Shown here one piece after another: positions 2,562-37,553 of a DNA stretch of 37,553 bases; positions within the stretch are counted from its first letter, which is position 1; the number at the start of each line of letters is the position of its first letter. This DNA is from Noviherbaspirillum sp. Root189 (GTDB taxonomy: Bacteria; Pseudomonadota; Gammaproteobacteria; Burkholderiales; Burkholderiaceae_D), in the NCBI RefSeq assembly GCF_001428545.1, contig NZ_LMHZ01000067.1, forward strand, positions 297,894-335,446, in the 5' to 3' direction. The notes beneath the pieces are model-generated. The model was not told where the DNA came from and did not search any database. It was given only the letters and a program-made list of their open reading frames with translations. The position numbers and the translations under genes are program-made.

Positions 2562-2666
2562 GCACGGGCAAAAAGCGGATCGCCCACCGGTGATCACAAC
2601 AGGACAGTTGACCCGAAGGCGCCAACCGTGCGGTGAATGCGATAGAACTCCGCCGCGCGGGTCGCT

Positions 2667-2893: not shown

Positions 2894-3059
2894 TGTCGTT
2901 CCTTAAGCACCATTTCCAAGTTTGCGTTATCTGCGATGCCGTCGTTTGGACCGCGTCGAGCAAGATCAAAAAAGAAGCCGTAATATAGTGCCGTTGCCGC
3001 CTTACTTGCATCTGTCCTACCCTTTGACACCGCCCCATTATTTAACATGGAGTTGAGCT

Positions 3060-6764: not shown

Positions 6765-6768
6765 CATC

Positions 6769-7092: not shown

Positions 7093-7098
7093 TAGCCA

Positions 7099-7857: not shown

Positions 7858-7902
7858 CTACATGTTTGAATCACAGTTGTGGTAACGAGGGAGAATAATC
7901 TT

Positions 7903-8229
7903 ATGCCGTTGAAACGGGTTATGTTTGCATCGATGCTTCTCCTGCTGTTTGGCCCGCCACTAGCCAACGCAGCCGAACAAATTGACCATGGGCGCAGGCT
8001 CTATGCCACTTGCGCGGCCTGTCATGGTACCGATGGACGCTCTCAGGGTGCCGGCGGGCTGCGGCAGCTCGTGGGTCAGTCCAGGGATGCGTTAGTCGCT
8101 AGCATGAAGGCATTCAGGTCAGGTCAACGTGAGGCAACCATCATGCATCAGATTGCACGTGGTTACAGTGACGAGCAGATCGACCTGATCGCAGGCTTCC
8201 TGGCAGCACAAAAAAGGGAGGCGCGATGA
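7903..8229 (+). CDS. Monoheme cytochrome c, probable cytochrome subunit of flavocytochrome c sulfide dehydrogenase
   Basis: This 108-residue exported class I cytochrome has a signal peptide ending near NAAEQ (residues about 1-23). One heme motif, CAACHGTDG, is followed by the c-type helix sequence ending IAGFLAAQ. It is encoded directly before, and overlapping by ATGA with, a flavocytochrome c sulfide dehydrogenase flavoprotein. It is therefore most likely the electron-accepting heme subunit (FccA/SoxE-like). The start at 7903 is chosen because AGGGAGA lies eight bases upstream; an in-frame GTG at 7879 has no site. The probable distal methionine is the one in ATIMHQIARGY. Confidence 0.82.
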   Translation: MPLKRVMFASMLLLLFGPPLANAAEQIDHGRRLYATCAACHGTDGRSQGAGGLRQLVGQSRDALVASMKAFRSGQREATIMHQIARGYSDEQIDLIAGFLAAQKREAR

Positions 8230-9497
8230 AAAGACGGCATTTTATACAAGCGGTGAGTACAGCTGCATTTGCTTCTATGATGAGCAGCGTGGTGGCCGCA
8301 CCGAAGGCTCGACCGAAGGTTGTTGTAATTGGCGCGGGCTATGGCGGAGCTACGGCGGCTCGGTACCTGCGTATGTGGAGCGAAGGCGCAATCGACGTCA
8401 CGTTGGTGGAACCAAACCCGGCCTTCGTTTCCTGCCCCTTATCCAACCTCGTACTGGGCGGTTCACGTCAATTATCCGACATCACCATTGGCTATGGCCC
8501 GCTTACGCAACGGCATGGTATTCAGCTGATACGCGATCGTGCTGAGTCGATTGAGCCGGAAAAGCGCCTGGTCAGGCTTGCTGGTGGCCAGACCTTAGGC
8601 TACGATCGCCTGATCATGTCGCCGGGTGTTGATTTTGTATGGACGGCCTTGCCAGGCATGATGCGTGCCGACGCGCGCGAAACGATTCTGCACGCATGGA
8701 AGGCCGGCGAACAGACGGTCGCGCTGCGGCGGCAGCTTGAGGCTATGTCCAACGGCGATAACTTTGTCATGTCGATCCCGCCGCAGCCTTACCGATGCCC
8801 GCCGGGACCTTACGAGCGAGCGTGTCAAGTCGCATACTATTTCAGTCAGGAAAAACCGAAATGCCGCGTGATCCTTTTGGATGCGAATGAGGACGTCGTT
8901 TCCAAGGGGGCGCTCTTCAAGAAGGTATGGGCAGAGCGTTACGGGGATCTTATTGAATACCGTGCGAGTTTCAGGACCGCTGACGTAGATGCAAAGACGG
9001 GCACTGTCATATCGGAGCTAGGCGAGGAGGTTGAGGGCAAGGTATTGAACGTTATTCCTCCGCAGCAGGCGGCGAGGATTGCGGTTCAGACCGGATTGGC
9101 AAACGCAAATCGACGCTGGTGCGAAGTTGACTTCCTCACATTCGAATCGACCGGAGCACCTCACATTCATGTACTAGGTGATGCAATTCAAGTCGCACCG
9201 CTGATGCCAAAATCGGCGCATATGGCGAATCAGCACGCCAAGATATGCGCGGCTGCCATCATCGATCTATTTAGCGACCGGACGCCCGAACCAAAGCCGA
9301 TGCTAACGAATACTTGTTACAGCTATGTATCGAACAAGGAGGTCATTCACGTGACATCAGTGCATGCTTATGATGCACAGAAAAAGACCTTGCTTAGCGT
9401 CCCCGGTGCGGGCGGGGTGTCAACTGCGCCGAGCGAACTCGAAGGACGATACGCGGCGGAGTGGGCGCTAAACATCTGGGCCGATACCTTAGCGTAA
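8226..9497 (+). CDS. Flavocytochrome c sulfide dehydrogenase, flavoprotein subunit
   Basis: This 423-residue exported FAD protein (SoxF/FccB type) oxidises sulfide to sulfur and passes electrons to the cytochrome subunit. The N-terminus MKRRHFIQAVSTAAFAS is Tat-like. The FAD-binding GAGYGG motif starts near residue 36. The family motif PYRCPPGPYERAC places a redox cysteine at C191. Its likely partner is C364 in NTCYSYV, by analogy with the disulfide beside FAD in FCSD. The GDAIQVAPLMPKSAHMANQHAK stretch is the second FAD contact. Length is typical (about 420-430). It overlaps the cytochrome gene by ATGA and closes the sulfur block. A weak 6 bp hairpin at 9541-9558 follows, with no clear terminator. 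Confidence 0.9.
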   Translation: MKRRHFIQAVSTAAFASMMSSVVAAPKARPKVVVIGAGYGGATAARYLRMWSEGAIDVTLVEPNPAFVSCPLSNLVLGGSRQLSDITIGYGPLTQRHGIQLIRDRAESIEPEKRLVRLAGGQTLGYDRLIMSPGVDFVWTALPGMMRADARETILHAWKAGEQTVALRRQLEAMSNGDNFVMSIPPQPYRCPPGPYERACQVAYYFSQEKPKCRVILLDANEDVVSKGALFKKVWAERYGDLIEYRASFRTADVDAKTGTVISELGEEVEGKVLNVIPPQQAARIAVQTGLANANRRWCEVDFLTFESTGAPHIHVLGDAIQVAPLMPKSAHMANQHAKICAAAIIDLFSDRTPEPKPMLTNTCYSYVSNKEVIHVTSVHAYDAQKKTLLSVPGAGGVSTAPSELEGRYAAEWALNIWADTLA

Positions 9498-22422: not shown

Positions 22423-22947
22423 TTAATAGGATGTCACAGCTTCCGGGAACGATATTTCACTTTGGACGTCACGTTTGAAATCAAGCAGCAGCACGACGCG
22501 GGTTGTGTCGCTCTTGTTCCAAGCTTCGTGAAGATATGTATCGTCGAACACGAAGCAGGATCCGGGGCGCCAGGTTCGCGTCTCGCCGGCGACCTTGATG
22601 CCGCAATCAGCTGGTGTGATGAGTCCGAGATGGCATCTCAGAACTTTATTGGTATAGCCGACATGCGGGGCTATATGTGTGCCGGATGCAAGCGAAGAGA
22701 AGCCAGCAGTGACGAGTCCCGGAATTGTTTCAACCAGTTCGGTCGTCCTCGGACAAAGAGCGCAGTGTTCGTCGACGCGCTTTCCAAATTTGTAGAGCCC
22801 AAAGACCGTCCACTTGCCGCTGTAGATATCGCGCTCCGGCCAATCGATGAAGTAGGTGTTGCTCAAGTTATGCAACTCGTCCAGCACCTTTTGCCACTCG
22901 TTTTGCAGCCGAACGAGCGACGGGAAATCGGTTGTGTCCAAAAACAT
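22423..22947 (-). CDS. Aspartyl/asparaginyl beta-hydroxylase-type Fe(II)/2-oxoglutarate dioxygenase
   Basis: This 174-residue single-domain dioxygenase is of the AspH type. The metal site in this family uses two His without the carboxylate: here H95 in HIAPHVGYTNK and H140 in FDDTYLHEAWN. R150 in TTRVVLLLD is the expected 2-oxoglutarate anchor. The strand LRCHLGLITPADCGIKV matches the family closely. AAGGAG nine bases before the ATG supports the start. It is divergent from the NRPS genes and upstream of the sigma-54 regulator, so it likely hydroxylates an amino acid, free or carrier-bound, for the peptide. Related enzymes hydroxylate Asp or Lys in siderophore and lipopeptide pathways. None of the A domains fully readable here carries an Asp or Lys code, so the target may lie in modules beyond the right edge. 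Confidence 0.9.
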   Translation of the reverse strand: MFLDTTDFPSLVRLQNEWQKVLDELHNLSNTYFIDWPERDIYSGKWTVFGLYKFGKRVDEHCALCPRTTELVETIPGLVTAGFSSLASGTHIAPHVGYTNKVLRCHLGLITPADCGIKVAGETRTWRPGSCFVFDDTYLHEAWNKSDTTRVVLLLDFKRDVQSEISFPEAVTSY

Positions 22948-23373: not shown

Positions 23374-23520
23374 GTGAATATAACTCTATTTGATTTGCAC
23401 GAGAGCGTGGACGGGTTCGCCTTCACGCTTTGCCGGTGTCGGGCGGTCGCGACAAAGACCGGTCGGGCACTCACGTGTTCCGGGCTGACAGACTGTGGTG
23501 AAGGAGGTATTCGTGATTGA
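23374..23520 (+). CDS. Small 48-residue cysteine-containing ORF in the NRPS leader
   Basis: A GTG at 23374 lies six bases after GGAGGAG (23361-23367), a strong ribosome site. It opens a frame (MNITLFDLHESVDGFAF then TLCRCRAVATKTGRAL) that runs to TGA 23518-23520. The frame overlaps the NRPS start by eight bases (GTGATTGA), so the two would be translationally coupled. It contains four cysteines (two as CRC) and is not MbtH-like: the MbtH tryptophans and overall pattern are absent. It may be a leader peptide, a small accessory protein, or coincidental coding with the ribosome site used otherwise. The family is not recognised. Confidence 0.4.
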   Translation: MNITLFDLHESVDGFAFTLCRCRAVATKTGRALTCSGLTDCGEGGIRD

Positions 23521-26500
23521 AGACTCGATCCCCGCTGCCCTTGACGCGCGCGAGGAGCGCTTTCCGCTGACCTCCGCCCAGCGCGAGGTGTGGTTCGATC
23601 AGGTCATGCACGCCGACGTTCCCTTATACAACATCGGCGGCTACATGCGTATCGAAGGCGAACTCGACCGCGGCCGTTTCACGCAGGCGTTCAACCTTCT
23701 TCTTCAGAAGCACGACGCTCTGCGCCTCGTTCTCGTCCGCCCCGATGATACGAACGGCGAGCCGCAGCAGACATTCCCAAGAGGCTTGCGATTCGAAGTG
23801 CCGCTGCACGATTTTTCAAAGCTGCCGGATGCGCACGCTGCCGCCGAGCGCTGGGTGCAAGAAAGCTTGGACCAGCCATTCCAACTGTATGGCCAGCGTC
23901 TTTTCCGCTGCGATCTCATCAAGATATCGGATGCCTTGTGTTACTGGTCCATGCATTTTCATCACCTGGTCACGGATGGATGGGGCATCGCCTTGCTGGG
24001 CCACTCGATGGCCGCAATCTACGGCGCGTTGGAAGCCGGGCAGGAGCCGGACCTTTCCGTGCCGCAGTACACAGGCTACGTTTCGAGCGATCGGGAGTAT
24101 TTGCGCAGCGACGCCTATCATCGGCAACGCACGTACTGGCTGTCGAAATACGAGGACGTTCCGGAAGCCTTGTTTACACCGCGGCGTCGCATGGGTGAAG
24201 CCGTGCGAGGGCGAGCGAGCGACTGCATGACCTTCACACTTCCGCGCGCGCTCTATGACCGCATCGGAGATTATGCGGAGAGCAGGGGGGCGACGACGTT
24301 TCAGGTCATCCTTGCCCTGTTGTACGTATATGCCGCGCGCACCACCCAGCGTGAAGATGTCACGATCGGCATTCCGGTGCTGAACCGCTCGAATGCCGCG
24401 TTCAAGAATACTTTCGGCCAGTTTGCCGGCATCAGCCCGGTACGCATGAACTTGTCGATGGAACTCGGCTTCGATCATGCGCTGCGTGAACTGGGCGGCG
24501 TACTGAAGAGGGATTACAGAAACCAGCGTTTTCCGATCAGCGAACTCAATCGCGTACTTGGACTGCGCCAGGCCGAACGGTCTCAGATGTTCGACATCTG
24601 CTTATCCTACGAGCGCCATGATCATGACGTGGTGATGGGTACGGCGCGCGGCGTTTCGGTCGCCATGCTCAACGGATATCAGCAGACGCCGCTGACCCTG
24701 TTCGTCCGGGAATTTAATCGCAGCGACGATATCCGGCTCGATTTCGTGTTCAACACGCGCTACTTCGATGCGGCCGCGATCGTCTCCGTGCATCAACGCC
24801 TGCGCCTGCTGATCGACGCGATCCTTGATGAAAGCGACACGCCGTTGTGCCGTCTGCCGCTACTTGGGCAGGATGAACTGGCACAACTCGCGGCCTGGAA
24901 CGACACCGGCGCGTCTTACAATGTGCCGGAGCGGGTGCATCAGATGTTCGAGGCACAGGCTGTCGACCATGGCAAGGCCATTGCCGTGATCAGCGATGAG
25001 CGCTGCCTCAGTTATCGCGAACTGAACGAAGAAGCCAATCGCCTGGCCCGTCATCTGGTGGCGTCAGGCGTCCGGCCGAACGATCCGGTCGCCGTCTGCA
25101 TGCCTCGCTGCCCGCAATTGCCGATCGCAATCCTGGCCATACTTAAGGCGGGTGGAAGCTATGTGCCGCTCGATCCGGCATATCCGACGGAGCGGCTCAA
25201 GCATCTGCTGGACGACAGCGCACCGGCTGCGGTTCTGGTCCGGTCAGGAATTCCGGACGCCGCACGTGCCGCGATTCAGGAATCGCTGGCCCCGGACGCG
25301 TCTCCTGCCAGGCTGGTCGACATGGATCAGGACGCGCCCGCATGGCAGCTTCAGCCGGCCTCGAACCTGGTGCCGGCGGATCTGCCCGCGCCGGATGAAA
25401 GCATCGCCTACATTATCTACACCTCTGGCTCGACCGGCAGTCCGAAGGGCGTGGCCAACACGGTCGCGGGCCTGCGCAACCGGCTTGCGTGGTTTCATCA
25501 GGCTGTTGCGGAAATGCCGCTGGTCACGGCTTTCAAGACCAGCATCGGCTTCGTCGATTCCGTCACTGAAATCCTGGAAACCCTGACGTGCGGCGGCAGT
25601 CTCGTTGTGTTCGAACCGGACAGTACGCGCGATCCGCTCGCTTTTGCGCAACGAGTCAGCCAGTGCGGCGTCACCAATCTGGTGCTCGTGCCCTCCTTGC
25701 TGAAGCACTTCGTGACGCTTGACGGCGCGGCATTCGCCTCCGTGCGCACCATCATGTGCAGTGGGGAACGCCTTGCACCTGATCTGGTGCGCGCATTCAG
25801 CGATCGGCATCGCGGAATCCGTCTGTTCAATTTTTACGGCTCCTCCGAAGCGAATGGCGATTCGACCGCCTATGAATACACTGCGCCGGCGATGACGACG
25901 CTCGACGACGGCTCGATCATTGGTCGTCCGATCGCTAATACACACATCTACATCCTCGACAAGTGGGGGCAACAAGTTCCGCCCGGAGTATCTGGCGAGC
26001 TCTACGTTTCCGGAGTTGGTGTGGCCCGCGCCTACTTGAATCAACCGGAGCGGACAACCGAGCGTTTTACCGCGGACCCGTTTTCCTCAAAGCCAGATAT
26101 GCGGATGTATCGTACGGGCGACCTCGCGCGTTTTCGCCCAGATGGAAATATCGAGTATCTGGGTCGTAACGATTTTCAGTTAAAGATTCGCGGGTTCCGC
26201 ATTGAGCCGAGCGAGGTGGAACAGGCGCTGGCGAGCCATCCCTGCGTCAAAGAATGCGTGGTGGTGGCCGATGCCGGGAGCGAGGACGGATACCGGCTTG
26301 CAGCGTATGTGGTGCCGCAGGCGACGCAAGATTCCAGCGCGCACGATGATGACTTCCAGGGTTTCAGCTTGTTCTACTTTGGCGCCGAGACCTACGATCC
26401 GACCGATAAATATCGGCTATACATCGAATCCGCCCGCTACGCAGATAAAAACGGCTTTCACGCGGTATGGACGCCCGAGCGCCATTTCCATGAAGTCGGG

Positions 26501-27871
26501 GGCCTGTATCCGAACCCAGCGACCTTGAGCGCCGCACTCGCGACAATCACGCACCGCGTACATTTGCGCTCCGGCAGTGTGGTCCTGCCGCTGCAGAACC
26601 CGGTGCGTGTTGCCGAAGAATGGTCAGTGGTTGACAATCTTTCCGGCGGGCGCGTCGGCGTATCTGTAGCGTCCGGGTGGGTGCCGCGCGACTTCGTACT
26701 GGCGCCCGACAACTACCCGTGCCGCAAGGAAGTGATGGCGGCCGGGATCGACGCGCTCAAGGCGCTTTGGCGCGGAGAGCAGCTTGCGTTGCCTGACGGC
26801 GCCGGGAAATCATCCTCGGTACGAATTTACCCGAAGCCTATACAGCCCGAGCTGCCACTCTGGGTGACCTCATCCGGAAATCCCGCTACTTTCGCGCAGA
26901 CCGGTGCGCTCGGCGCCAACCTGTTGACCCATCTTCTCGGCCAGACTATCGATGAGGTGGCGACAAATATCGGGGTCTACCGGCAGGCGTTGGCCGAGCA
27001 TGGCCACGATCCGAAACGCGGTCGCGTCACACTGATGGTGCATACGTTTCTCGGACCGGATTTTGAACAGACCCTGGATAGGGCGAAAGCGCCGTTTACG
27101 CGCTACATGCGTTCGCATCTCGGGCTGCTGGAAGCCTTCGCGAAGGGTATGGATATTCCGACCAGCAGCCTTGACGAGAAGAACATCGACACCATCGTGA
27201 ACTATGCTTTCGAACGCTATTCCAGAACCGCGTCGCTGATTGGTACGCCACAGACCTGTGTCGACGTGGTCTCGCAGTTGAGGGACATCGGTGTCAACGA
27301 GATCGCCTGTCTCATCGACTGGATGGATACCGAAGCGGCCTTGCAGGCCTTACCGTATCTGAACGAACTGCGGCAACTTTCGCAAAAGGCACCGCCAAGT
27401 GCCAACGTCATGCGCAAACACTTGAAACGCTCGTTGCCCCACTACATGATTCCGTCCAGCCTGACCTACCTGAATCAACTGCCGCTGACCGCCAGCGGAA
27501 AACTCGATCGCAAGGCTTTACCCAAGCCGGGCAGGGTGGCGGTGAACCGCCGCTATGTCGCCCCACGTACGCCGAGCGAAACGACGTTGGCGCAGATCTA
27601 TGCGCAAGTCCTGAACTTGCAGGCGGTCGGAACACAGGATCGTTTCTTCGAAATCGGCGGTGACTCATTGCTTGCGGTGAAGCTGAACAATGCCATCGGC
27701 GAGGCCTTCAATCTTACGCTCCCGATCCGAGATCTTTTCGAGCATGCAAAGCTCGAAGAACTCGCGGAGCACCTGGATGTGTTGAAGGCGGCGAAAGCGT
27801 CGACCCTGAACAGGATCCTGCCTCTATTGGACCAATCCCGGGCGACGGAAGCGGTGGTTGTGCGAGTATGA
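23513..27871 (+). CDS. NRPS module C-A-T with an FMN luciferase-like monooxygenase embedded in the A domain
   Basis: This 1452-residue single-module synthetase starts at GTG 23513, five bases after AAGGAGG. The condensation domain (about 15-450) has an intact HHLVTDG near residue 150. As the first domain of the line it may be a starter C domain that attaches an acyl group. The A domain (about 465-1340) has A3 YTSGSTGSPKG, A5 NFYGSSEA, A7 YRTGDLAR and A8 QLKIRGFRIEP. Between A8 and A10 (TASGKLDRKAL, about 1328) lies a roughly 340-residue domain (about 945-1285). It opens FSLFYFGAETYDPTDKYRLY and includes WTPERHFHEVGGLYPNP and LSGGRVGVSVASGW. This is the MupA/Atu3671-type FMN-dependent monooxygenase. 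A carrier domain (GGDSLLAVK, about 1381) ends the protein. The hand-read pocket code is V-D-T-V-M-S-F-G-D, lacking Asp at the usual first position. It ends in an ATGA overlap with the next gene. Confidence 0.93.
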   Translation: MIEDSIPAALDAREERFPLTSAQREVWFDQVMHADVPLYNIGGYMRIEGELDRGRFTQAFNLLLQKHDALRLVLVRPDDTNGEPQQTFPRGLRFEVPLHDFSKLPDAHAAAERWVQESLDQPFQLYGQRLFRCDLIKISDALCYWSMHFHHLVTDGWGIALLGHSMAAIYGALEAGQEPDLSVPQYTGYVSSDREYLRSDAYHRQRTYWLSKYEDVPEALFTPRRRMGEAVRGRASDCMTFTLPRALYDRIGDYAESRGATTFQVILALLYVYAARTTQREDVTIGIPVLNRSNAAFKNTFGQFAGISPVRMNLSMELGFDHALRELGGVLKRDYRNQRFPISELNRVLGLRQAERSQMFDICLSYERHDHDVVMGTARGVSVAMLNGYQQTPLTLFVREFNRSDDIRLDFVFNTRYFDAAAIVSVHQRLRLLIDAILDESDTPLCRLPLLGQDELAQLAAWNDTGASYNVPERVHQMFEAQAVDHGKAIAVISDERCLSYRELNEEANRLARHLVASGVRPNDPVAVCMPRCPQLPIAILAILKAGGSYVPLDPAYPTERLKHLLDDSAPAAVLVRSGIPDAARAAIQESLAPDASPARLVDMDQDAPAWQLQPASNLVPADLPAPDESIAYIIYTSGSTGSPKGVANTVAGLRNRLAWFHQAVAEMPLVTAFKTSIGFVDSVTEILETLTCGGSLVVFEPDSTRDPLAFAQRVSQCGVTNLVLVPSLLKHFVTLDGAAFASVRTIMCSGERLAPDLVRAFSDRHRGIRLFNFYGSSEANGDSTAYEYTAPAMTTLDDGSIIGRPIANTHIYILDKWGQQVPPGVSGELYVSGVGVARAYLNQPERTTERFTADPFSSKPDMRMYRTGDLARFRPDGNIEYLGRNDFQLKIRGFRIEPSEVEQALASHPCVKECVVVADAGSEDGYRLAAYVVPQATQDSSAHDDDFQGFSLFYFGAETYDPTDKYRLYIESARYADKNGFHAVWTPERHFHEVGGLYPNPATLSAALATITHRVHLRSGSVVLPLQNPVRVAEEWSVVDNLSGGRVGVSVASGWVPRDFVLAPDNYPCRKEVMAAGIDALKALWRGEQLALPDGAGKSSSVRIYPKPIQPELPLWVTSSGNPATFAQTGALGANLLTHLLGQTIDEVATNIGVYRQALAEHGHDPKRGRVTLMVHTFLGPDFEQTLDRAKAPFTRYMRSHLGLLEAFAKGMDIPTSSLDEKNIDTIVNYAFERYSRTASLIGTPQTCVDVVSQLRDIGVNEIACLIDWMDTEAALQALPYLNELRQLSQKAPPSANVMRKHLKRSLPHYMIPSSLTYLNQLPLTASGKLDRKALPKPGRVAVNRRYVAPRTPSETTLAQIYAQVLNLQAVGTQDRFFEIGGDSLLAVKLNNAIGEAFNLTLPIRDLFEHAKLEELAEHLDVLKAAKASTLNRILPLLDQSRATEAVVVRV

Positions 27872-30800
27872 GCTTAACCCACTTGCTCGAAACACTTGCC
27901 GACGCTTCAGTCCAACTCAAGCGGGACGGCGACGAACTGGTCGTTACATTCAGTCGTGGCGCGCCAGACGATACCATGATCACTGCCCTGCGCATCCACA
28001 AGGCGGCGCTCCTGCAATTCCTGGATGAGCGCGGCGGAAGCTGGACACCCGAGCAGAAAGCGCTATCTGCGCCGGCAGGTACGCCGCTGTCGTTCGGCCA
28101 GCAGCGTCTGTGGTTTCTGAATCAGCTGCAGCCTGCGAGCGCCGCATACAACGAGGAATTCTGCGTGCGCATGCAAGGGGAGATCAATCTCCCGACACTG
28201 GAGGATGCGCTGAACACGATCATGCAACGTCATGACATCCTGCGCACACGCTTTTGTAACGAGGATGGGCGACCTGCCATCAACGTAACAGGGGAACTTG
28301 CAATTCGCCTGTATCTCCATGACTTGAGCCACATGGAATCGTCTGAGCGCATGCGTACGGCGCTCGAATTGGCCGGTGCACTCGTCTTGCAACCGTTCGA
28401 CCTGGCTGTCGGCCCGCTGCTGCGCGCGAACCTGACCAGGCTCGATGCGCAGGATCATCTTCTGCAGGTCTGCATGCACCATATGGTTTCGGATGGATGG
28501 TCAATGCGCGTGCTGGCCGGCGAGCTCGTTGCAATCTACCGGGCCTTGTCCGAGGGCCGGAAACACACCCTGCCTAGGCCGGAAATCCAGTACGTCGACT
28601 ATGCGGTCTGGCAGCGGGCCAATCTCGAACAGGGAGCGCTGCACGCACAGACTGACTTCTGGCGAAAACAGTTACAGGGTGCTCCCGCAGTGTCGACGTT
28701 GCCGGCCGACCGTGCCCGGCCGTCGGTCCAGGATTACAGCGGCGCCTCCGTAAACGTCGAGATCGATGCGGAGCTGACCGCGCGACTCAGGCAGTTCAGC
28801 ACGCGCCATCAGGCGACCTTATTCATGACGGTCCTGGCCGGCTGGTCAGCAGTGCTGTCGCGCCTGTCAGGCCAGAATGATCTGGTTGTGGGATCGCCGG
28901 TTGCTGGGCGCGGGCGTGCGGAGCTTGAAACGCTGATCGGTTTCTTTGCCAATACGTTACCCCTGCGGATCAATTTGGACGGGGCGCCGAACGCAGTCGA
29001 ACTCGTGCGGCGCACAAAGGAGACCGTCATCGCCGCGCATGACCATCAAGACTTGCCGTTCGAGTACATGGTGGACGCACTCAAGCCTGCGCGCAGCACG
29101 TCTCATAGCCCGCTGTTCCAGGTCATGCTGAATTGGCAGACTGCGGTTACCGACGACATCGATTTTCCCGGCCTAAAGCTTAGTGCGGTCTACACACCCT
29201 ACGACATCGCCAAGTTCGACTTGACGTTGCGCATTGTGGAGGAAAAACACAGACTGCTGGCTCGCTTCGAGTATGCGACCGCATTGTTCGATCGGCTCAC
29301 TATCGAACGACACGCACGCTACCTAATTCGAATATTGCTGCAAATGACCGACAACGAACTGGTTCCGATGAGCGCGCACCAGTTGATTGACGGCGACGAG
29401 CGACGGCAGCAAGTGTTTGAGTGGAACGACACGCAGGCAGCGTTCGAGGACGACGCATGCATCCATCAACTTTTCGAGATGCAGGCGCGCAGTCATCCGG
29501 AAAAGATCGCGCTGGTGCATAGCGGCACCTCTCTGAGCTACCGCGAACTCAATGCGCGGGCGAACCGTCTGGCGCGGCATCTCCGGCAGCGCGGCGTCGG
29601 TGCTGACACGCCGGTCGCGATATGCATGGAACGCGGATGCGACATGATCATTGGCCTGCTCGCGGTGCTCAAGGCGGGCGGTGCCTACGTCCCGCTCGAC
29701 CCGGCTCATCCGGTTGAGCGGCTTGCGCACGCAGTGCACGACAGCGAAGCTGTGCTTGTACTGCTTGATTCGCGTCTTGACCCGGGCTTGCGTGCAATGT
29801 TTGGCGCTGCCTGCACCTCGGTGCTGTTGCTAGATGAACAGGCGGGCGACTGGATCGATGAACTGGAGTCGGACCTGGATGCGGCTGCGATGGGTCTGTC
29901 GGCGTCGAACCTCGCCTACGTGATCTATACCTCGGGCTCGACGGGAAAGCCCAAGGGAGTTATGGTCGAGCATCGGGGCGTAGTTAACCTGCTACAGTCG
30001 ATCGGTCATACCGTTGGTATGCATGCGGACGAACGCGTGCTGGCGCTGACCACAATCGCTTTTGACATTGCCGCGCTCGAACTCTACCTGCCGCTGATCC
30101 ATGGCGCATGTATCGTGCTGTGCGGACGTTCGGACAACGCGGATCCGGTTGCCCTAAGCGTGTTGCTGGACCAGAATGAAATCAGTTTGATGCAGGCCAC
30201 ACCGGCCACATGGCGCATGTTGCTGTCCGGCGGATGGGCGGGCGCCACCCGTCTGAAGGCGCTATGCGGCGGCGAGGGGCTTTCGCGCGCACTCGCACGC
30301 GAGCTGGCGTCGAAGGTCGGCCGGCTATGGAACGTGTACGGGCCGACAGAGACGACGATCTGGTCGACCTGCGCAGCGCTCGGTACGAATGAGGCCCGCG
30401 GGACCGCCGCGTATGCACCGATCGGCAGGCCGCTCGCAAACACGCGCCTATACCTGCTCGATGCCGAGCAGCAGGTTGTTCCGCTTGGAGCCGTGGGTGA
30501 GTTGTATATCGGCGGTGCTGGCGTGGCGCGCGGTTATCTCAAGCGGCCTGAACTCGATGCCGAACGCTTTGTTGTCGACTGCTTTGCCGGCGACGGAACA
30601 CGCATGTACCGGACCGGCGATCTTGCACGCTACCTTCCTGACGGAAATCTCGAGTTCCTGGGACGCTCGGATTTCCAGGTCAAGTTGCGTGGCTTCCGCG
30701 TGGAGCTCGGCGAAATCGAGGCTTGCATGGTGCGTCATCCGGACGTGCGCGAGGCCGCCGTTCTCCTGCAGGGAAGTGACGACGACGACAAGCGGCTCGT

Positions 30801-33800
30801 CGGATATTTCACTGCTGCTGCCGATGCACGCGTGGACATCGCCACCCTGCGCGCCTACCTTGCCACCTTTCTTCCCGATTACATGGTGCCGGCTGCCGTT
30901 GTCGCGCTTGCAGAAATGCCGCTTACACCAAACGGCAAGCTTGACCGCAAGGCGCTTCCGGCGGCTTTGCCCGATGAATTTGCCCACAGCGCATATGTGG
31001 CGCCGGCGGACGACATCGAAATCGCGCTGGCGCGGATCTGGAGTGCGCTGCTCGGGATTGAACGGATCAGCCGCCTCGAGCATTTCTTTGAGGCCGGCGG
31101 TCAGTCCTTGTTGGCGGTACGCCTGATTTCCCGGATCCGGTCTGAACTCGGGGTAGAGCTGAACGTCACGCAGGTGTTTGCGTATCCGGTGCTGGGCGAC
31201 ATGGCAGTGATGGTCAGGACCGCCGCACGCAGCGAATTGCCGCCGGTGACGCCGGTGTTGCGGGCAGAACCCTTGCCGCTGTCGTTTGCCCAGCAGCGGC
31301 TATGGTTCCTTTCGCAGCTGGAGCATGTCAGCCGTGCCTACAACATGGGTTTCGCGCTCAGGCTGGCGGGCGAACTGGATCGCGCCGTCCTGCAGCGTGC
31401 TCTGGATCGACTGGTCGAACGCCACGAAGCTTTGCGCACAGTCTTCCTGCTTGCCGACGGGCAGCCTCGTCAGCGCATCCTTTCTCCCGCGCGTGGCTTC
31501 CCGCTCGAGTACGTCGACCTGGAAAGAGATGCCGACGCGACCAAACGCTTGCAAGCCCTGATGCACGACGAAGTCGCGGCGCCATTCGACCTCCAGCGCG
31601 GCCCGCTCGCGCGCGGCCGCCTGATCCGGTCCGCGGAAAGCGAACACGTTCTGTTGTGCACGATGCATCACATCGTGTCGGATGGCTGGTCCGTCGGCGT
31701 CTTGACGCGCGAGCTAAGCGCGCTGTATCGCGCATTCAGCAGCGGGGAGCCGGATCCCTTGCCGCCACCAGCGTTTCAATATGCCGATTACGCGCTATGG
31801 CAGCGCCGCTGGAGCACCACAGAGACGCTGGAGGGACACGCAAAATACTGGACAACGTTGCTTGCCGATGCCCCCAAACGACTGGAGCTGCCCGTAAACC
31901 GGCCCCGTCCCGCAGAGCAGGATTATTCGGGCGCATTCCTAGAAACACGCCTCGACGAGCAACTAGCGCACGACCTTCGCGCGCTGAGTCAGCGCCACGG
32001 TACGACCCTGTTCATGACTTTGCTGGCCGGATGGGCGGTGCTGCTGGCGCGTCTGGCCGGCACCGATGACCTGGTCATCGGAACGCCGGTAGCAAATCGT
32101 ACCCGGGTGGAGGCCGAACCCCTGGTCGGCTTCTTCGTCAATGCACTGGCGCTGCGCCTGGACCTTTCCGGCGACCCGGACGTGGCGGAAATTTTGGCAC
32201 GCGTCAAGCGCCGCACGCTGGAGGCCCAAGAGCACCAGGCACTGCCGTTCGAACACCTGGTCGAGAGCCTCAGCCCGACTCGAACGCTGGATCACCATCC
32301 GGTTTTCCAGGTCAGCTTCACCTGGCAGAACAACGACGAAGGAGCAGTCAGCTTCCCGGGCATGCAGGTGGAAGTGCTGCAGCCGCCGCGTCTGACCACG
32401 AAGTTCGATCTGTCACTGTACCTGGCCGAGGATGAAGGCGGAATCACTGGCGGGATCGAGTATGCGACCGCGCTGTTCGACTCTTCAACGATCGCGCGTT
32501 ACCTCGGGTATTTTCACAACACCCTGCGGGCCATGGCGGCGGATGAGGGCGCGACTGTCAGCCGCATCCCGCTCATGAACGGAGCCGAAACGCGCAGTGT
32601 GTTGGGCCTGGATGCGGTCGAAGCCGCACCGGTCGATGTAGTGTGTGTACATGAATCCTTTGAGGAGCATGCGCACCGGCATCCCGAGGCAGTGGCCCTG
32701 ATGCACGGTCCGGTATCGGTGAGCTACGGCGAGCTTAACAGCAGGGCGAACCGACTGGCACACTACCTGCGACGCAAGGGCGTTGCTCCGGATACATACG
32801 TCGCGCTTTGCCTCGATCGCGGCGTTGATCTCATTGTTGCTATTCTAGCCGTGCACAAGGCGGGCGGCGCCTATGTGCCGCTGGACCCGACGTATCCCGC
32901 GGACCGGCTGGACTACATGCTCGCCGACAGCAAGCCGGTAGTCGTCCTTACGCACGCAGGCGTGAAGCAGGCGTCACGCACTGTGCTCGAACGCGCGTCA
33001 GTGCCGGTCATCGATCTGCAGGAGCAGGAGAGCGCGTGGCGGCAGGAGCCGGCATCGAACCCCGATAAAGCGAACGGCGCCGGCCCCGAGGATCTTGCCT
33101 ATGTCATCTATACATCCGGATCCACCGGTCGACCCAAGGGTGTGCTGGTCGAACACCGTAACGTCGCACGCCTGTTCACCACGATCCGCGACCGGTTCAA
33201 CTATTCCGCATCGGATGTCTGGACCTTGTTTCATTCCTGCGCATTCGATTTTTCGGTATGGGAGATCTGGGGCGCGTTGGCGCATGGCGGACGCCTGGTT
33301 GTCGTTTCACACGACACGTCACGTTCCCCGGCACAGTTCTATCAGCTTCTCTGCGACGAGGGAGTGACCATCCTTAACCAGACGCCGAGCGCCTTCCGCC
33401 AGCTCGTGGAAGCGCAGCGCCAGAGTGATCTGACGCACCGCCTGCGCGCAGTGATCTTCGGCGGCGAGGCGCTGGAGCCAGCCATGCTGAAACCCTGGCA
33501 TGAACAGGCGCGCAACCGGAACACTCAACTCGTCAACATGTACGGCATCACGGAAACGACGGTCCATGTCACATACCGTGCCCTGGCACCAACCGATACG
33601 AACCGTGCTGGCGTCAGCCCCATCGGCCATCCGATTCCGGATCTGTCCGTCTATATCCTCGACCGGCATGGCGCCCCGGTTCCCCCCGGCGTTGCTGGAG
33701 AAATGTATGTCGCGGGCGCCGGCGTCGCGCGCGGTTACCTGAATCGTCCCGAACTGACAGCGGAACGCTTCCTGACCGATCCCTTTTCTGGACGGCCGAT

Positions 33801-35754
33801 GGCGCGCATGTACAAGACCGGCGACCTGGCGCGGCGCCTGCCGGATGGCGAGATCGAGTATCTGGGGCGTAACGACATGCAGGTCAAGCTGCGTGGCTTC
33901 CGTATCGAGCTGGGCGAGATCGAAGCCCGCCTGGCCGAACACTCGGCCGTGCGTGAGGCCGCCGTGGTCGCCCGGGACAACGGGCCGGACGACAAGCGCC
34001 TGATCGCCTACCTGACCGCACGCACCGATTTCACGCAGGAGGAAGCCCTGCAACTCGCGCATGAGCACATCGCGGAGTGGTCGCGCCTCTACGACCAGAC
34101 CTATGATGACAAGTCGTTCGAGCAGGCGAAACCGGGCTTCAATTTTGTAGGCTGGCGCAGCAGCTACACGCACCAACCGATTCCGGATGTCGAAATGCAC
34201 GAGTGGCTGGACGGTACCTTGCGCCGCGTGCGCGGGCTCAATCCGCGCCGCGTGCTCGAAATCGGATGCGGAACCGGCATGATTCTCCTCAACGTTGCGC
34301 CCGCATGCGAACGCTATGTGGGTACCGATCTTTCTCGCAAGACGGTCGAACAGCTTTCTCGCCACATTCGTTCGGACCCGGAGCTGAACGCGCGCATCGT
34401 GCTCGTGCACGGGAATGCGGCGGATTTGTCCGGCGTGCCGCAGGAACGCTATGACACGGTCATCCTCAATTCGGTTGTCCAGTATTTTCCGAACAGTGAG
34501 TACCTGTTCGAAGTGCTGGCAGGAGCGGCTGGCAAAGTCGCGGCTGGTGGCAGGATCTTCATCGGTGACGTGCGCCACCACGGCCTGCTCGAAGCATTCC
34601 ACCTGTCGGTGCAGCTCGCGCAACCCACTCCCGGCCTGAGCACCGCGCAACTGAGGACGCGGATCCGGCAGAAGGCTCGACTGGACCCCGAGCTATTGCT
34701 CGATCCGGAGTGGTTCATGTCGCTGAGCGAAAAGATACCGAGCATCTCCGCCGTCCAGATCCTCCCCAAGGAAAGCGCGCATCTGAACGAGATGTCGGCC
34801 TACCGCTATGACGTCGTGCTGACCATCGCGGCGCCGTCGGATGTCGCGCAGGTGCCGCACTGGATTGACTGCGATACCGCCGGCTGGGGCGCCGCCGAGA
34901 TCGGCCGCGCCATCATTGACTCGCCGCATGCGCTGATCGGCCTCAGGTCGGTGTTCAATCCGCGTGTCGGGCCGGTCGCCCGGATGCTCGATCAAATGCA
35001 GGAAGGGCAGTCGAGCACCGACACATTCGATGCGGGACGTGACAGCGCTGCCGAAGCCGGCATGACCTGCGCGGATCTGGCCGAATTCTGCCGGCAGCGA
35101 GGTTACCTGCTCAAGTTGAGCTGGTACCCGGCCGACAAATCCGGTGCCTATCATGCCGTGGTGTCTAAGAGCGACACATTGCCTGACGTCGACTGGCAAC
35201 GCCAAGGACACGCATCGTTGGCCGGCAATCGCTTGTCACATGCAAACGATCCCTTGCAGGCCAAGCGGCTGGCAACGCTTCCGGATGAATTGCGCGCGCA
35301 CCTCGCGTTGAAGCTACCGGAGTACATGGTGCCGGCGGCGTTCCACACGCTTGATGCCCTACCTTTGACAATGAACGGCAAGCTGGACCGTAACCGCCTG
35401 CTTGAAGAAGACGCACCGGTCCACGCGGCGCACCGGTATGAAGCGCCGGTAGGAGAGATCGAAACGGAACTGGCCGTCATCTGGGCCGAACTCCTTAAGG
35501 TTCCGCACGTCGGCCGGAACGACGATTTCTTTGCGCTCGGCGGCCACTCGCTACTTGGCACCAAGCTGATCGCCCGGGTCGCCCACGACATGGGCGCCGA
35601 AGTGTCAATCCAGGACCTGTTTTCCAGGCCGACGCTCGCCACGCTTTCCGAAAGGATCGTGAACCTGTTGCTGGCCGACCTGACGCCGGGCGAACTCGAC
35701 GGCGAACAAGCCGGTTCCGGCGCTGAACCCTCCACGCTATCGACGCTGACATGA
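27868..35754 (+). CDS. NRPS, docking-C-A-T-C-A-NMT-T, predicted to add glycine and N-methyl-threonine
   Basis: This 2628-residue bimodular synthetase begins with a TubC-type docking domain (about residues 1-55), which receives the upstream NRPS. Module 1: C (HHMVSDG near 203), A (A3 YTSGSTGKPKG near 685) and T (GGQSLLAVR near 1076). Its hand-read code D-I-L-Q-C-G-V-I-W is close to the glycine code DILQLGLIW. Module 2: C (HHIVSDG near 1268), A (A3 near 1746) and T (GGHSLLGTK near 2558). Its code D-F-W-N-I-G-M-V-H is identical to the classical threonine code. Between A8 and A10 a methyltransferase domain (about 2050-2340) has SAM motif VLEIGCGTGM, then VGTDLS and ILNSVVQYFPN, so the Thr nitrogen is likely methylated. 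There are no epimerase or thioesterase domains. It overlaps the third NRPS gene by ATGA. Confidence 0.95.
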   Translation: MSLTHLLETLADASVQLKRDGDELVVTFSRGAPDDTMITALRIHKAALLQFLDERGGSWTPEQKALSAPAGTPLSFGQQRLWFLNQLQPASAAYNEEFCVRMQGEINLPTLEDALNTIMQRHDILRTRFCNEDGRPAINVTGELAIRLYLHDLSHMESSERMRTALELAGALVLQPFDLAVGPLLRANLTRLDAQDHLLQVCMHHMVSDGWSMRVLAGELVAIYRALSEGRKHTLPRPEIQYVDYAVWQRANLEQGALHAQTDFWRKQLQGAPAVSTLPADRARPSVQDYSGASVNVEIDAELTARLRQFSTRHQATLFMTVLAGWSAVLSRLSGQNDLVVGSPVAGRGRAELETLIGFFANTLPLRINLDGAPNAVELVRRTKETVIAAHDHQDLPFEYMVDALKPARSTSHSPLFQVMLNWQTAVTDDIDFPGLKLSAVYTPYDIAKFDLTLRIVEEKHRLLARFEYATALFDRLTIERHARYLIRILLQMTDNELVPMSAHQLIDGDERRQQVFEWNDTQAAFEDDACIHQLFEMQARSHPEKIALVHSGTSLSYRELNARANRLARHLRQRGVGADTPVAICMERGCDMIIGLLAVLKAGGAYVPLDPAHPVERLAHAVHDSEAVLVLLDSRLDPGLRAMFGAACTSVLLLDEQAGDWIDELESDLDAAAMGLSASNLAYVIYTSGSTGKPKGVMVEHRGVVNLLQSIGHTVGMHADERVLALTTIAFDIAALELYLPLIHGACIVLCGRSDNADPVALSVLLDQNEISLMQATPATWRMLLSGGWAGATRLKALCGGEGLSRALARELASKVGRLWNVYGPTETTIWSTCAALGTNEARGTAAYAPIGRPLANTRLYLLDAEQQVVPLGAVGELYIGGAGVARGYLKRPELDAERFVVDCFAGDGTRMYRTGDLARYLPDGNLEFLGRSDFQVKLRGFRVELGEIEACMVRHPDVREAAVLLQGSDDDDKRLVGYFTAAADARVDIATLRAYLATFLPDYMVPAAVVALAEMPLTPNGKLDRKALPAALPDEFAHSAYVAPADDIEIALARIWSALLGIERISRLEHFFEAGGQSLLAVRLISRIRSELGVELNVTQVFAYPVLGDMAVMVRTAARSELPPVTPVLRAEPLPLSFAQQRLWFLSQLEHVSRAYNMGFALRLAGELDRAVLQRALDRLVERHEALRTVFLLADGQPRQRILSPARGFPLEYVDLERDADATKRLQALMHDEVAAPFDLQRGPLARGRLIRSAESEHVLLCTMHHIVSDGWSVGVLTRELSALYRAFSSGEPDPLPPPAFQYADYALWQRRWSTTETLEGHAKYWTTLLADAPKRLELPVNRPRPAEQDYSGAFLETRLDEQLAHDLRALSQRHGTTLFMTLLAGWAVLLARLAGTDDLVIGTPVANRTRVEAEPLVGFFVNALALRLDLSGDPDVAEILARVKRRTLEAQEHQALPFEHLVESLSPTRTLDHHPVFQVSFTWQNNDEGAVSFPGMQVEVLQPPRLTTKFDLSLYLAEDEGGITGGIEYATALFDSSTIARYLGYFHNTLRAMAADEGATVSRIPLMNGAETRSVLGLDAVEAAPVDVVCVHESFEEHAHRHPEAVALMHGPVSVSYGELNSRANRLAHYLRRKGVAPDTYVALCLDRGVDLIVAILAVHKAGGAYVPLDPTYPADRLDYMLADSKPVVVLTHAGVKQASRTVLERASVPVIDLQEQESAWRQEPASNPDKANGAGPEDLAYVIYTSGSTGRPKGVLVEHRNVARLFTTIRDRFNYSASDVWTLFHSCAFDFSVWEIWGALAHGGRLVVVSHDTSRSPAQFYQLLCDEGVTILNQTPSAFRQLVEAQRQSDLTHRLRAVIFGGEALEPAMLKPWHEQARNRNTQLVNMYGITETTVHVTYRALAPTDTNRAGVSPIGHPIPDLSVYILDRHGAPVPPGVAGEMYVAGAGVARGYLNRPELTAERFLTDPFSGRPMARMYKTGDLARRLPDGEIEYLGRNDMQVKLRGFRIELGEIEARLAEHSAVREAAVVARDNGPDDKRLIAYLTARTDFTQEEALQLAHEHIAEWSRLYDQTYDDKSFEQAKPGFNFVGWRSSYTHQPIPDVEMHEWLDGTLRRVRGLNPRRVLEIGCGTGMILLNVAPACERYVGTDLSRKTVEQLSRHIRSDPELNARIVLVHGNAADLSGVPQERYDTVILNSVVQYFPNSEYLFEVLAGAAGKVAAGGRIFIGDVRHHGLLEAFHLSVQLAQPTPGLSTAQLRTRIRQKARLDPELLLDPEWFMSLSEKIPSISAVQILPKESAHLNEMSAYRYDVVLTIAAPSDVAQVPHWIDCDTAGWGAAEIGRAIIDSPHALIGLRSVFNPRVGPVARMLDQMQEGQSSTDTFDAGRDSAAEAGMTCADLAEFCRQRGYLLKLSWYPADKSGAYHAVVSKSDTLPDVDWQRQGHASLAGNRLSHANDPLQAKRLATLPDELRAHLALKLPEYMVPAAFHTLDALPLTMNGKLDRNRLLEEDAPVHAAHRYEAPVGEIETELAVIWAELLKVPHVGRNDDFFALGGHSLLGTKLIARVAHDMGAEVSIQDLFSRPTLATLSERIVNLLLADLTPGELDGEQAGSGAEPSTLSTLT

Positions 35755-37553
35755 ACGTTCCCCCATTAGACGACTTGCCGCAGGACGACCGCGACCGCCT
35801 GGTGCGCCTGGCGCGTGCTGCCAAGCTCAAACGCCAGGCAGCGATACCGACGCTTCAGCGTGGCAAGCCGTTCCCGCTGTCATTTGCCCAGCGGCGACTG
35901 TGGTTCGTTTCACGCATGCAGGTGGAAAGCGCGCCGTACCACATTTCGATCGGCCTGCGGATCGAGGGAAGGCTGAATCGGTCCGCCTTGCAACATGCTT
36001 TCTCCACACTCGTCGCGCGACATGAAGCATTGCGAACGACCTTCGCGCTGGTTGACGACGAGCCCGTGCAGATCATTGCTTCGGGCAGCACGGACATTGC
36101 CTTGCACGAAGAGGATCTGGCAGCCTGCGCTACGCGCGATGTGCTTGACGCAGCGGTGCACGAGGCAATGGCGGCGGAAGCGCGCATGGCGTTCGACCTG
36201 GAGAAGGGGCCGCTGGTGCGCGGCCGCTTGCTCAAGCTGGGTGAGGATGAACATGTGCTGCTGATCGCGATGCATCACATCGTGTCGGACGGCTGGTCAC
36301 TAGGCGTCGCGACCGATGAGCTTACTGCGCTTTACAGGGCCCACCTGGACAGTAGTGCGGAAGCCCTGCCCGCCTTGGCGGTACAGTACGCGGACTATGC
36401 GGTCTGGCAGCGGGGGCGCCTGCAGGAAGCTGGTTGGCAGGCTCAGATGAAGTATTGGCAGCGGACCTTGGCCGGCGCACCGGCAGTCCTCGATCTGCCG
36501 TTCGACTCGCCGCGCCCGGTGCAACAGGATTTTGCAGGAGGCTATGTCGAGCTGGTTCTCGACCCTGCACTGACAAGCAAGTTAAAGGCGCTGGCACAAC
36601 GTCGTGGCATCACGCTGTTCATGACTGTGCTGACAGGTTGGGCGGTCCTATTGTCGCGCTTGTCAGGTCAAGAAGACCTGGTTGTCGGAACGCCGACCGC
36701 TAATCGCAGGCGCAAGGAACTGGCGGGAATGATCGGCTTCTTCGTCAACGTGCTGGCGCTACGCATCGATCTGTCAGGCAATCCAGATGTGGCCGAATTG
36801 TTAGCACGGGTCAAGGCGCAGGCGCTTGTGGCGCACGAACATCAGGAACTGCCATTCGAGCAGGTGGTCGAGATCGTTAACCCGCCGCGCAGCACCGCGC
36901 ACAGTCCGCTGTTCCAGGTTTCGCTCACCTGGCAGAACAATGACGAAGGTAATTTGCATGTGCCCGGCCTGAAGTTTTCCCGGCTCGAAGGACATTCGGG
37001 TACCGCAAAGCATGACTTGTCGCTGTATCTGGGTGAGGTGGGCAACAGAATCTCGGGTGGTCTCGAATACGCGACGGTCTTGTTCGAACGCAGCACGATA
37101 GAACGGTACTGCGGCTACCTGCGGCAGGTACTGCAGGCGATGGTGGAAGACGACAGCCGAAGCATCGCCACGCTGCCGCTGCTGGACGCCAGCGAGCGGC
37201 AGCGTCTGCTGGTCGAATGGAACGCGACCCAAGCTGCGTATCCGGAGGGTTCCTGTATCCATGAACTGATCGAGGCGCGGGCAGTCGCGTCGCCGCAGGC
37301 AGTGGCGCTTTCGCATGAAGGCGCCGAAGTCAGTTATGCCGAACTCAATGCCCGGGCCAACCGGCTGGCGCGCCAGTTGCGCAGGCAGGGCGTGGTGCCC
37401 GATGCGCGGGTGGCAATCTGCATGACGCGCGGCATCGACATGGTGGTTAGCCTGCTGGCGGTGTGGAAGGCCGGTGGTGCCTACGTGCCGCTGGATCCGG
37501 CCTATCCGCCCGGGCGGCTGGAGTTCATGCTGGAAGACAGCGCCCCGGTGGCG
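35751..37553 (+). CDS. NRPS, C-A start of a third synthetase, cut by the window edge
   Basis: ATG 35751 overlaps the stop of the previous gene (ATGA) and the frame stays open to the last base (601 codons). The N-terminus is a short charged helix (MNVPPLDDLPQDDRDRLVRL), not a TubC domain. A condensation domain follows (from about residue 45, PLSFAQRRLWFVSRM), with intact HHIVSDGWS near residue 175. From about 505 an adenylation domain begins (VSYAELNARANRLARQL, then LAVWKAGGAYVPLDPAYP). The binding pocket and everything later lie beyond the edge, so specificity and the release domain are unknown. Sequence is strongly similar to the preceding modules, suggesting module duplication. Confidence 0.93.
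   Translation, partial: MNVPPLDDLPQDDRDRLVRLARAAKLKRQAAIPTLQRGKPFPLSFAQRRLWFVSRMQVESAPYHISIGLRIEGRLNRSALQHAFSTLVARHEALRTTFALVDDEPVQIIASGSTDIALHEEDLAACATRDVLDAAVHEAMAAEARMAFDLEKGPLVRGRLLKLGEDEHVLLIAMHHIVSDGWSLGVATDELTALYRAHLDSSAEALPALAVQYADYAVWQRGRLQEAGWQAQMKYWQRTLAGAPAVLDLPFDSPRPVQQDFAGGYVELVLDPALTSKLKALAQRRGITLFMTVLTGWAVLLSRLSGQEDLVVGTPTANRRRKELAGMIGFFVNVLALRIDLSGNPDVAELLARVKAQALVAHEHQELPFEQVVEIVNPPRSTAHSPLFQVSLTWQNNDEGNLHVPGLKFSRLEGHSGTAKHDLSLYLGEVGNRISGGLEYATVLFERSTIERYCGYLRQVLQAMVEDDSRSIATLPLLDASERQRLLVEWNATQAAYPEGSCIHELIEARAVASPQAVALSHEGAEVSYAELNARANRLARQLRRQGVVPDARVAICMTRGIDMVVSLLAVWKAGGAYVPLDPAYPPGRLEFMLEDSAPVA

What the first reader, a model, noticed from the sequence alone, without database searches (positions are those of the whole stretch)
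26349..27365. In-line luciferase-like monooxygenase inside an NRPS adenylation domain
Seen: between A8 and A10 of NRPS1 sits a roughly 340-residue domain with the MupA/Atu3671 hallmarks (WTPERHFH-x3-GGLYPNP, SGGRVGVSVASGW). Known: MtaG/MelG of myxothiazol and melithiazol carry a monooxygenase in the A domain of a glycine-loading terminal module that forms amides. Inference: here the module comes first, so oxidation (alpha-hydroxylation, N-hydroxylation or other) would happen on the starting residue, a different arrangement.
Basis: partly seen in the sequence, partly recalled or inferred. Interest (0 to 1): 0.82.

Follow-up and report, generated by a model that had tools for sequence, protein, structure and literature searches.

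The report
Oxygenase built into beta-alanine peptide module
A peptide-making enzyme module that appears to load beta-alanine carries a flavin oxygenase built into its amino-acid-activating domain, so it probably adds an oxygen to the first residue of an unknown bacterial peptide; the built-in oxygenase is known, but the published cases found all sit in glycine modules.

Summary
NRPS1 is C-A(LLM)-PCP. The insert is a full, undecayed TIGR04020 flavin monooxygenase (469 bits) at 26363-27373, between motifs A8 and A9. Embedded LLMs as such are known. The quoted analogue (MtaG/MelG) is inserted at A4/A5; SolF of solanimycin, inserted at A8/A9, is the nearer precedent. Oxidising a first (glycine) residue is also known (necroxime).

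Its A domain reads VDTVMSFGD, a beta-alanine-type code, not glycine. All 61 A4/A5 hosts with a complete code are glycine-coded. Of 12 A8/A10 hosts, 7 are glycine-coded and 5 beta-type. The beta-type A cores fall in one clade with an uninterrupted Mycetohabitans homologue, which in two of four strains has an aspartate decarboxylase gene (panP) beside it. The window's LLM is sister to the LLM of a glycine module in the same genome, so inserts and A cores were recombined repeatedly.

Most likely the LLM alpha-hydroxylates PCP-bound (acyl-)beta-alanine to isoserine. This is inferred, not shown. Verdict: a new variant of a known kind.

The parts
23513..27871 (+). NRPS1, C-A(LLM)-PCP; likely start is the GTG at 23513 behind AAGGAGG at 23501-23507 (open frame begins 23495)
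23555..24889 (+). Condensation domain C1, starter-like
   Evidence: PF00668 residues 21-465; best PDB hit 7c1k, 132.9 bits; groups 97/99 with first-module C domains of G206, Variovorax EL159 and Mycetohabitans
24947..26329 (+). Adenylation core, A1 to A8
   Evidence: PF00501 residues 485-848 and first half of PF13193 907-944
25553..25861 (+). Substrate pocket stretch; code residues V687 D688 T691 V730 M754 S756 F780 G788 D789 (VDTVMSFGD)
26363..27373 (+). Embedded TIGR04020 luciferase-like FMN monooxygenase (residues 957-1293)
   Evidence: 469 bits; PF00296; (model matches 6ket, TMt 0.91)
27374..27529 (+). Rest of the A subdomain with A9 (LPHYMIP, from 27434) and A10 (GKLDRKALP, 27497-27523)
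27584..27775 (+). Peptidyl carrier protein
   Evidence: PF00550 residues 1364-1427
27868..35754 (+). NRPS2: TubC-type docking, C-A(Gly code DILQLGVIW)-PCP-C-A(Thr code DFWNIGMVH, interrupted by a methyltransferase)-PCP
35751..37553 (+). NRPS3: C-A, cut by the end of the contig
22423..22947 (-). Aspartyl/asparaginyl beta-hydroxylase family protein, divergent from NRPS1; possible tailoring enzyme
   Evidence: PF05118, 168 bits

Best explanation
NRPS1 is a starter module. C1 joins an acyl group to the residue that the A domain loads. The pocket code and the clade of the A core point to beta-alanine. The LLM inserted between A8 and A9 uses FMNH2 and O2 to hydroxylate the carbon alpha to the carrier-protein thioester, so that beta-alanine (free or already acylated) becomes isoserine (2-hydroxy-3-aminopropionate) before it passes to the glycine and N-methyl-threonine modules of NRPS2. 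Shown here: the domain, its place, its intact conserved columns, the beta-type code and the relatives. Inferred: beta-alanine itself, alpha-hydroxylation, and timing.
For: Domain complete and undecayed. Code VDTVMSFGD differs at one place from VDTVISFGD, the code of uninterrupted A domains at all four Mycetohabitans loci looked at. panP (aspartate 1-decarboxylase, which makes beta-alanine) is the next annotated gene upstream of that NRPS in M. endofungorum B60, and the next gene downstream of the two NRPS genes in M. rhizoxinica B49, whose first NRPS gene holds two beta-type A domains, VDTVVSFGD and VDTVISFGD. Five of 12 A8/A10-type LLM modules have beta-type hosts against 0 of 58 A4/A5-type (Fisher p 6.5e-5; three more A4/A5 hosts coded later are also glycine); the beta-type A cores fall in one clade, 100/98. 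LLMs of this family acting on carrier-bound chains are reported or proposed as alpha-hydroxylases: SolF glycine in solanimycin B, myxothiazol/melithiazol glycine, palmerolide module 9. In a non-terminal module the residue must be kept; alpha-hydroxylation of beta-alanine keeps it.
Against: No product is known and the cluster is cut by the contig end. The sister LLM in the same genome sits in a glycine module, so the catalytic domain may be tuned to glycine; only one alignment column separated the three beta hosts from the six glycine hosts compared. panP was not in the flanks shown for two of the four Mycetohabitans loci. The beta-alanine reference code is recalled, not retrieved (searches found no paper printing it). 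Activity of the LLM was not tested.
Confidence: 0.55

Rival explanations
1. The LLM oxidises the amine: N-hydroxy-beta-alanine, which after acylation by C1 would be a hydroxamate, or further to an oxime.
For: Oxygenase domains in the first modules of necroxime are proposed to help turn a glycine primer into an oxime. C1 is starter-like, so an N-hydroxy residue could become an acyl hydroxamate.
Against: The A8/A9-type relative SolF is reported to alpha-hydroxylate carbon. No oxime-forming LLM sequence could be placed in the tree. NRPS1 is followed by a canonical Gly module, not by a PKS with oxime-forming domains.
Confidence: 0.17
2. The LLM hydroxylates the carbon next to nitrogen (C3 of beta-alanine). 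The hemiaminal then breaks and releases an amide, as proposed for MtaG/MelG at glycine.
For: Same family and same logic in the published release mechanism. One beta-type relative (G1054) is in a terminal module with two thioesterase-like stretches.
Against: In the window the module is first and non-terminal, so cleavage would abort the chain. C3 is not activated by the thioester.
Confidence: 0.1
3. The insert is idle here: it came with an exchanged A subdomain from the glycine module and the product holds plain beta-alanine (or oxidation is partial, as in solanimycin A/B).
For: Against the C51 glycine module the LLM is 73% identical and the A subdomain around it 55-62%, while the A core is 32-36%; the LLM tree pairs them 97/98.
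Against: 75 of 76 conserved columns kept; the pairing of beta-type A and LLM is found in four further genomes, with at least 4 label changes on the tree, which is hard to explain if it has no function.
Confidence: 0.1
4. The A domain loads another small beta-amino acid (for example 3-aminobutyrate or 2,3-diaminopropionate through its beta-amine) that the LLM alpha-hydroxylates.
For: The beta clade contains divergent codes (FDTTISFGD, IDWVSGL).
Against: Nearest code is one residue from the Mycetohabitans domains, which have panP beside them in two of four strains.
Confidence: 0.08

Closest known systems
SolF module 4 of solanimycin (Dickeya solani)
   Same: FMO/LLM domain inserted between A8 and A9 of an A domain; carbon alpha to the thioester hydroxylated; residue kept in the chain (PMC10204066, passages)
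   Different: Host A domain takes glycine; module is internal to a PKS/NRPS hybrid. SolF sequence itself was not held here, so its placement in the tree was not tested
MtaG / MelG of myxothiazol and melithiazol; MOx of corallorazine-type clusters
   Same: Monooxygenase domain inside an A domain
   Different: MtaG/MelG: glycine hosts, insertion between A4 and A5, amide release before a terminating TE. Corallorazine-type: inside the glycine-recruiting A2 of 38 pathways; insertion motif not stated in the passages read
First modules of necroxime (oxime also in lobatamide, recalled)
   Same: Oxidation of the first residue of an assembly line (glycine primer)
   Different: Oxime formation proposed, in a PKS/NRPS hybrid (PMC7318616, passages); not beta-alanine
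PuwE of puwainaphycin (PDB 6ket)
   Same: Closest solved LLM; 47% identity to the window LLM and TMt 0.91 with the model
   Different: PDB title calls it the OX domain of a hybrid PKS/NRPS; the solved chain holds no A domain
Beta-alanine-type module of Mycetohabitans NRPS
   Same: Starter-like C and A core 56-61% identical in B60, code one residue off
   Different: No LLM; uninterrupted A domain

Membership tests
TIGR04020 MupA/Atu3671 LLM | Score over curated cut-off over the full model | tested here: met
   469.2 bits vs 244.45, model 1-341
TIGR04020 MupA/Atu3671 LLM | Conserved columns kept | tested here: met
   75 of 76 columns at 90% or more in 89 relatives
TIGR04020 MupA/Atu3671 LLM | FMNH2-dependent oxygenation | not testable with these tools
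   needs enzyme
MtaG/MelG-type MOx module | Insertion between A4 and A5 | tested here: not met
   A3 lies 350 residues, A8 95 residues before the WTPERHF motif
MtaG/MelG-type MOx module | Glycine code | tested here: not met
   VDTVMSFGD
MtaG/MelG-type MOx module | Terminal module followed by TE | tested here: not met
   NRPS1 ends after PCP; NRPS2 overlaps it
SolF-type A8/A9-interrupted module | Insertion between A8 and A9 | tested here: met
SolF-type A8/A9-interrupted module | Glycine host | tested here: not met
SolF-type A8/A9-interrupted module | LLM groups with other A8/A10-inserted LLMs | tested here: met
   11-row branch, 93/91, holding all 9 A8/A10 rows then known and two non-embedded rows; SolF itself not included
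Beta-alanine A domain | Pocket code VDxV(I/M)SxxDK (reference recalled) | tested here: met
   VDTVMSFGDK
Beta-alanine A domain | Beta-alanine activation | not testable with these tools
   exchange assay needed
Starter C domain | Groups with first-position C domains | tested here: met
   97/99 with three first-gene C domains, on long branches and with an unsettled bootstrap

The most novel reading that the evidence does not exclude
There is a recurrent, repeatedly assembled class of NRPS module in which a beta-alanine-selecting A core carries an A8/A9-embedded flavin monooxygenase and makes isoserine on the assembly line. Members seen here lie in the window's own (unnamed) family, in Variovorax and in a Chloroflexi bin. 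The window is one example, in which a glycine-trained LLM was joined to a beta-alanine A core.
Probability: 0.5. Interest if true: 0.6.

Novelty: new variant of a known kind. Interest (0 to 1): 0.5.

Why it matters
If true, it gives a one-protein, on-line route to isoserine and a new pairing of A specificity with an embedded oxygenase. It also offers natural comparison pairs: an uninterrupted Mycetohabitans beta-alanine-type domain, and a glycine module with a sister LLM in the same genome. These would allow a direct test of what sets the site of oxidation in TIGR04020 domains. Glycine cannot tell 'alpha to the thioester' from 'next to nitrogen', because its one carbon is both; beta-alanine can. 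It would also add isoserine to what genome-mining rules can predict from sequence.

Tried and rejected
Those 80 are the most similar to a query made of A8/A10-type cores, so they are not a random sample of the family. Class-wide (4 of 369 genomes), order-wide (3 of 399) and family-wide (14 of 392) searches, each counting the window's own genome, showed TIGR04020 to be uncommon here. No close orthologue of NRPS1 turned up in 294 family genomes; the best matches that reach into the LLM are 40-42% identical (G212, G177, G219).

Considered and rejected: chance motif match (469 bits over the whole model); pseudogene insert (conserved columns kept); simple glycine module (code); membership of the MtaG/MelG type (insertion place, code and position all fail). 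G206, same genus, has a related first C domain but its A domain reads DGTLIAEVW, so it is not an LLM-free beta-alanine twin.

L104's last pocket residues changed with the alignment (IDWVSGLGW, IDWVSGLDA, IDWVSGLFW), so its code is only 'beta-type by clade'; without it Fisher p is 3.8e-4. G1103's code has a gap at one place. L165 read incompletely and as glycine (DILQMGMIW); the latter is counted.

Rows dropped or missed: three A4/A5 rows with incomplete codes (L083, L087, L111; glycine as far as read) are outside the 58 and 61. One LLM row under 320 residues (L111) was left out of the 90-row tree, in which the 90th row is PuwE. The motif sorting is imperfect: a profile check of the 24 frames not classed as A8/A10 or A4/A5, and of 11 frames found later, showed that L142 and three plasmid loci (L190, L191, L193) are A4/A5 as well and L182 (G1103) A8/A10; the three plasmid loci are glycine, L142 was not coded and is labelled 'alone' in the tree. 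L134 and L179 have low-scoring A-domain pieces before the LLM and were not classed. The C-domain tree contains two chance motif matches (L153_+4743, L158_+9824) and two doubled rows. The Fisher table used 59 A4/A5 rows; the corrected 58 is.

Paper searches (10 of 10) listed no paper that I could see describing a beta-alanine module with an embedded LLM; I saw listings and, for the papers opened, passages only. Subscription journals are mostly not held, so absence there is weak.
Full report
WHAT IS THERE. NRPS1 (open frame 23495-27871) reads C-A-PCP, with a full TIGR04020 luciferase-like monooxygenase inside the A domain. The Pfam A-subdomain model stops at position 38 of 76 just before the insert. 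Motif A8 starts at residue 897, the LLM covers 957-1293, A9 (LPHYMIP) starts at 1314 and A10 at 1335. The likely start is GTG 23513, behind AAGGAGG, so nothing precedes C1. NRPS1 and NRPS2 overlap by ATGA, NRPS2 opens with a TubC-type docking domain (26.2 bits, cut-off 26), and NRPS2 and NRPS3 overlap as well. So the LLM module is first of those seen. The contig ends inside NRPS3.

IT IS NOT DECAYED. Against 89 relatives, 76 columns are conserved in at least 90% of rows; the window keeps 75, the exception being T1136 where the others have Ala. An AlphaFold model of A plus LLM (866 residues, mean pLDDT 81.5, pTM 0.57; the alignment is shallow for the A part) matches A domains and, for the insert, 6ket (PuwE; TMt 0.91, 47% identity). 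Sequence search of solved structures also ranks 6ket first by far (366.5 bits; next 85.1).

THE HOST A DOMAIN IS NOT A GLYCINE DOMAIN. Reading the nine core pocket positions by alignment to a recalled GrsA fragment gives VDTVMSFGD (residues V687, D688, T691, V730, M754, S756, F780, G788, D789). The known beta-alanine code (VDWVISLADK, recalled; two searches for a paper printing it failed) has the same shift of Asp from position 235 to 236. A plasmid search found Mycetohabitans A domains about 53% identical. At all four loci looked at the code is VDTVISFGD with no insert. In M. endofungorum B60 panP, aspartate 1-decarboxylase, is the next annotated gene upstream of the NRPS gene, 1.1 kb away. 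In M. rhizoxinica B49 panP is the next gene downstream of the pair of NRPS genes, and the first of the two genes holds two beta-type A domains, VDTVVSFGD and VDTVISFGD. In B47 and B12 panP was not in the flanks shown. So panP is adjacent at 2 of 4 loci. An open-access paper reports beta-alanine A domains and starter C domains in Pseudomonas syringae with close relatives in Burkholderia and Xenorhabdus (PMC12171316, passages).

HOW UNUSUAL IS THE PAIR. Motif-based sorting of 90 LLM frames from the own genome, relatives and 80 genome-contig loci separated A8/A10 inserts, A4/A5 inserts and others. Adding the genomes and the contexts, there are 12 distinct A8/A10 modules: seven glycine-coded (C51 of the own genome, G212, G177, G219, L074, L095, G1059) and five beta-type (window; L089 Chloroflexi bin VDWVISLGD; L104 Variovorax sp. 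EL159; G1054 VDTMISTGD; G1103 IDWVVSI-D). Fisher's exact p is 6.5e-5 for 5 of 12 against 0 of 58, or 3.8e-4 without L104, whose code is not settled. Sequences are related and the sample was chosen by similarity, so the p-value is only a guide. A profile check of frames first left unclassed added L142 (not coded) and the three plasmid loci to A4/A5 and left two (L134, L179) unclassed. Within 392 genomes of the family, 14, the own one included, have a TIGR04020 match at 1e-60.

HISTORY. In the LLM tree all nine A8/A10 rows then known fall on one branch together with two non-embedded rows (93/91). In a smaller tree of 20 rows with all 12 A8/A10 modules, the window LLM is sister to the LLM of the glycine module on contig C51 of the same genome (97/98; 74% identity), and the beta-type label needs at least four changes on well-supported branches. 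In that smaller tree the A8/A10 rows do not form one group: L104, G1103 and G219 stand apart from the rest. The A-core tree disagrees with the LLM tree: the six beta-type cores, including the insert-free Mycetohabitans one, lie in one clade (100/98) with one further beta-like core, L104's second module, apart from the glycine cores. Along the protein, identity to the C51 module is 25% in C, 32-36% in the A core, 55% before the insert, 73% in the LLM, 62% after it and 35% in the PCP. The simplest reading is exchange of A cores or of the LLM-bearing subdomain between modules, more than once. Changes may be gains or losses.

FIRST RESIDUE AND C1. C1's best solved relative is 7c1k (132.9 bits; next distinct molecule 6n8e, 124.4). 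The PDB label is only 'Non-ribosomal peptide synthetase modules'; that this is the rhizomide starter C domain is recalled. In a tree of 37 C-domain stretches (two of them chance matches), C1 groups with the first C domains of G206, L104 and Mycetohabitans (97/99), on long branches and with an unsettled bootstrap. So C1 probably acylates the residue. The acyl source is unknown: Pfam scans of 20 upstream ORFs found metabolic, sulfur-oxidation and regulatory genes and no acyl-AMP ligase.

MECHANISM. [quoted passage not shown] Glycine cannot tell 'alpha to the thioester' from 'next to nitrogen'; beta-alanine can. In a first, non-terminal module, cleavage next to nitrogen would waste the chain, so alpha-hydroxylation to isoserine is the best bet. 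N-oxidation, as proposed for necroxime's glycine primer, stays open. The G1054 relative has the beta-type LLM module at the end of its line with two thioesterase-like stretches, so the class is not limited to first modules and cleavage is not excluded there.

NOVELTY. Embedded LLMs are known at A4/A5 and A8/A9, and MOx domains are reported inside glycine A domains of 38 corallorazine-type pathways. What I did not find in ten paper searches is a beta-alanine-type host. The held library lacks most subscription papers, so this is a statement about those searches only. I file the module as a new variant of the SolF-like A8/A9-interrupted type; it fails the MtaG/MelG tests on place, code and position.

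Noticed in passing
L006 (contig C51 of the own genome), 2356-3729, - strand: A second embedded LLM in the same genome, in a glycine-coded module (DILQLGMIW), 69% identical over A8-A10; C51 could belong to the same assembly line, which was not shown.
   Followed up: partly
window 22423-22947 (-): Aspartyl/asparaginyl beta-hydroxylase family gene divergent from NRPS1; possible tailoring enzyme of the cluster.
   Followed up: partly
window 704-2487: Tannase/feruloyl esterase (PF07519) split over two overlapping frames, 704-1933 and 1879-2487; a frameshift in gene or assembly.
   Followed up: no
G1054:C1 (L184, L185): A cluster with a beta-type LLM module at its end, followed by two thioesterase-like stretches.
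   Followed up: partly
L162, L168 (Mycetohabitans megaplasmids): panP (aspartate 1-decarboxylase) lies next to NRPS genes with beta-type A domains; a useful neighbourhood sign for beta-alanine incorporation.
   Followed up: partly
window 5809-9497: Cytochrome c, SoxY, a SoxA/TsdA-type cytochrome c and a flavocytochrome c sulfide dehydrogenase: a sulfur-oxidation gene group.
   Followed up: no
L104, second NRPS gene, A3 motif at 12410: A second module code FDTTISFGD, insert-free, inside the beta-type A clade: the Variovorax line may take two beta-amino acids.
   Followed up: no
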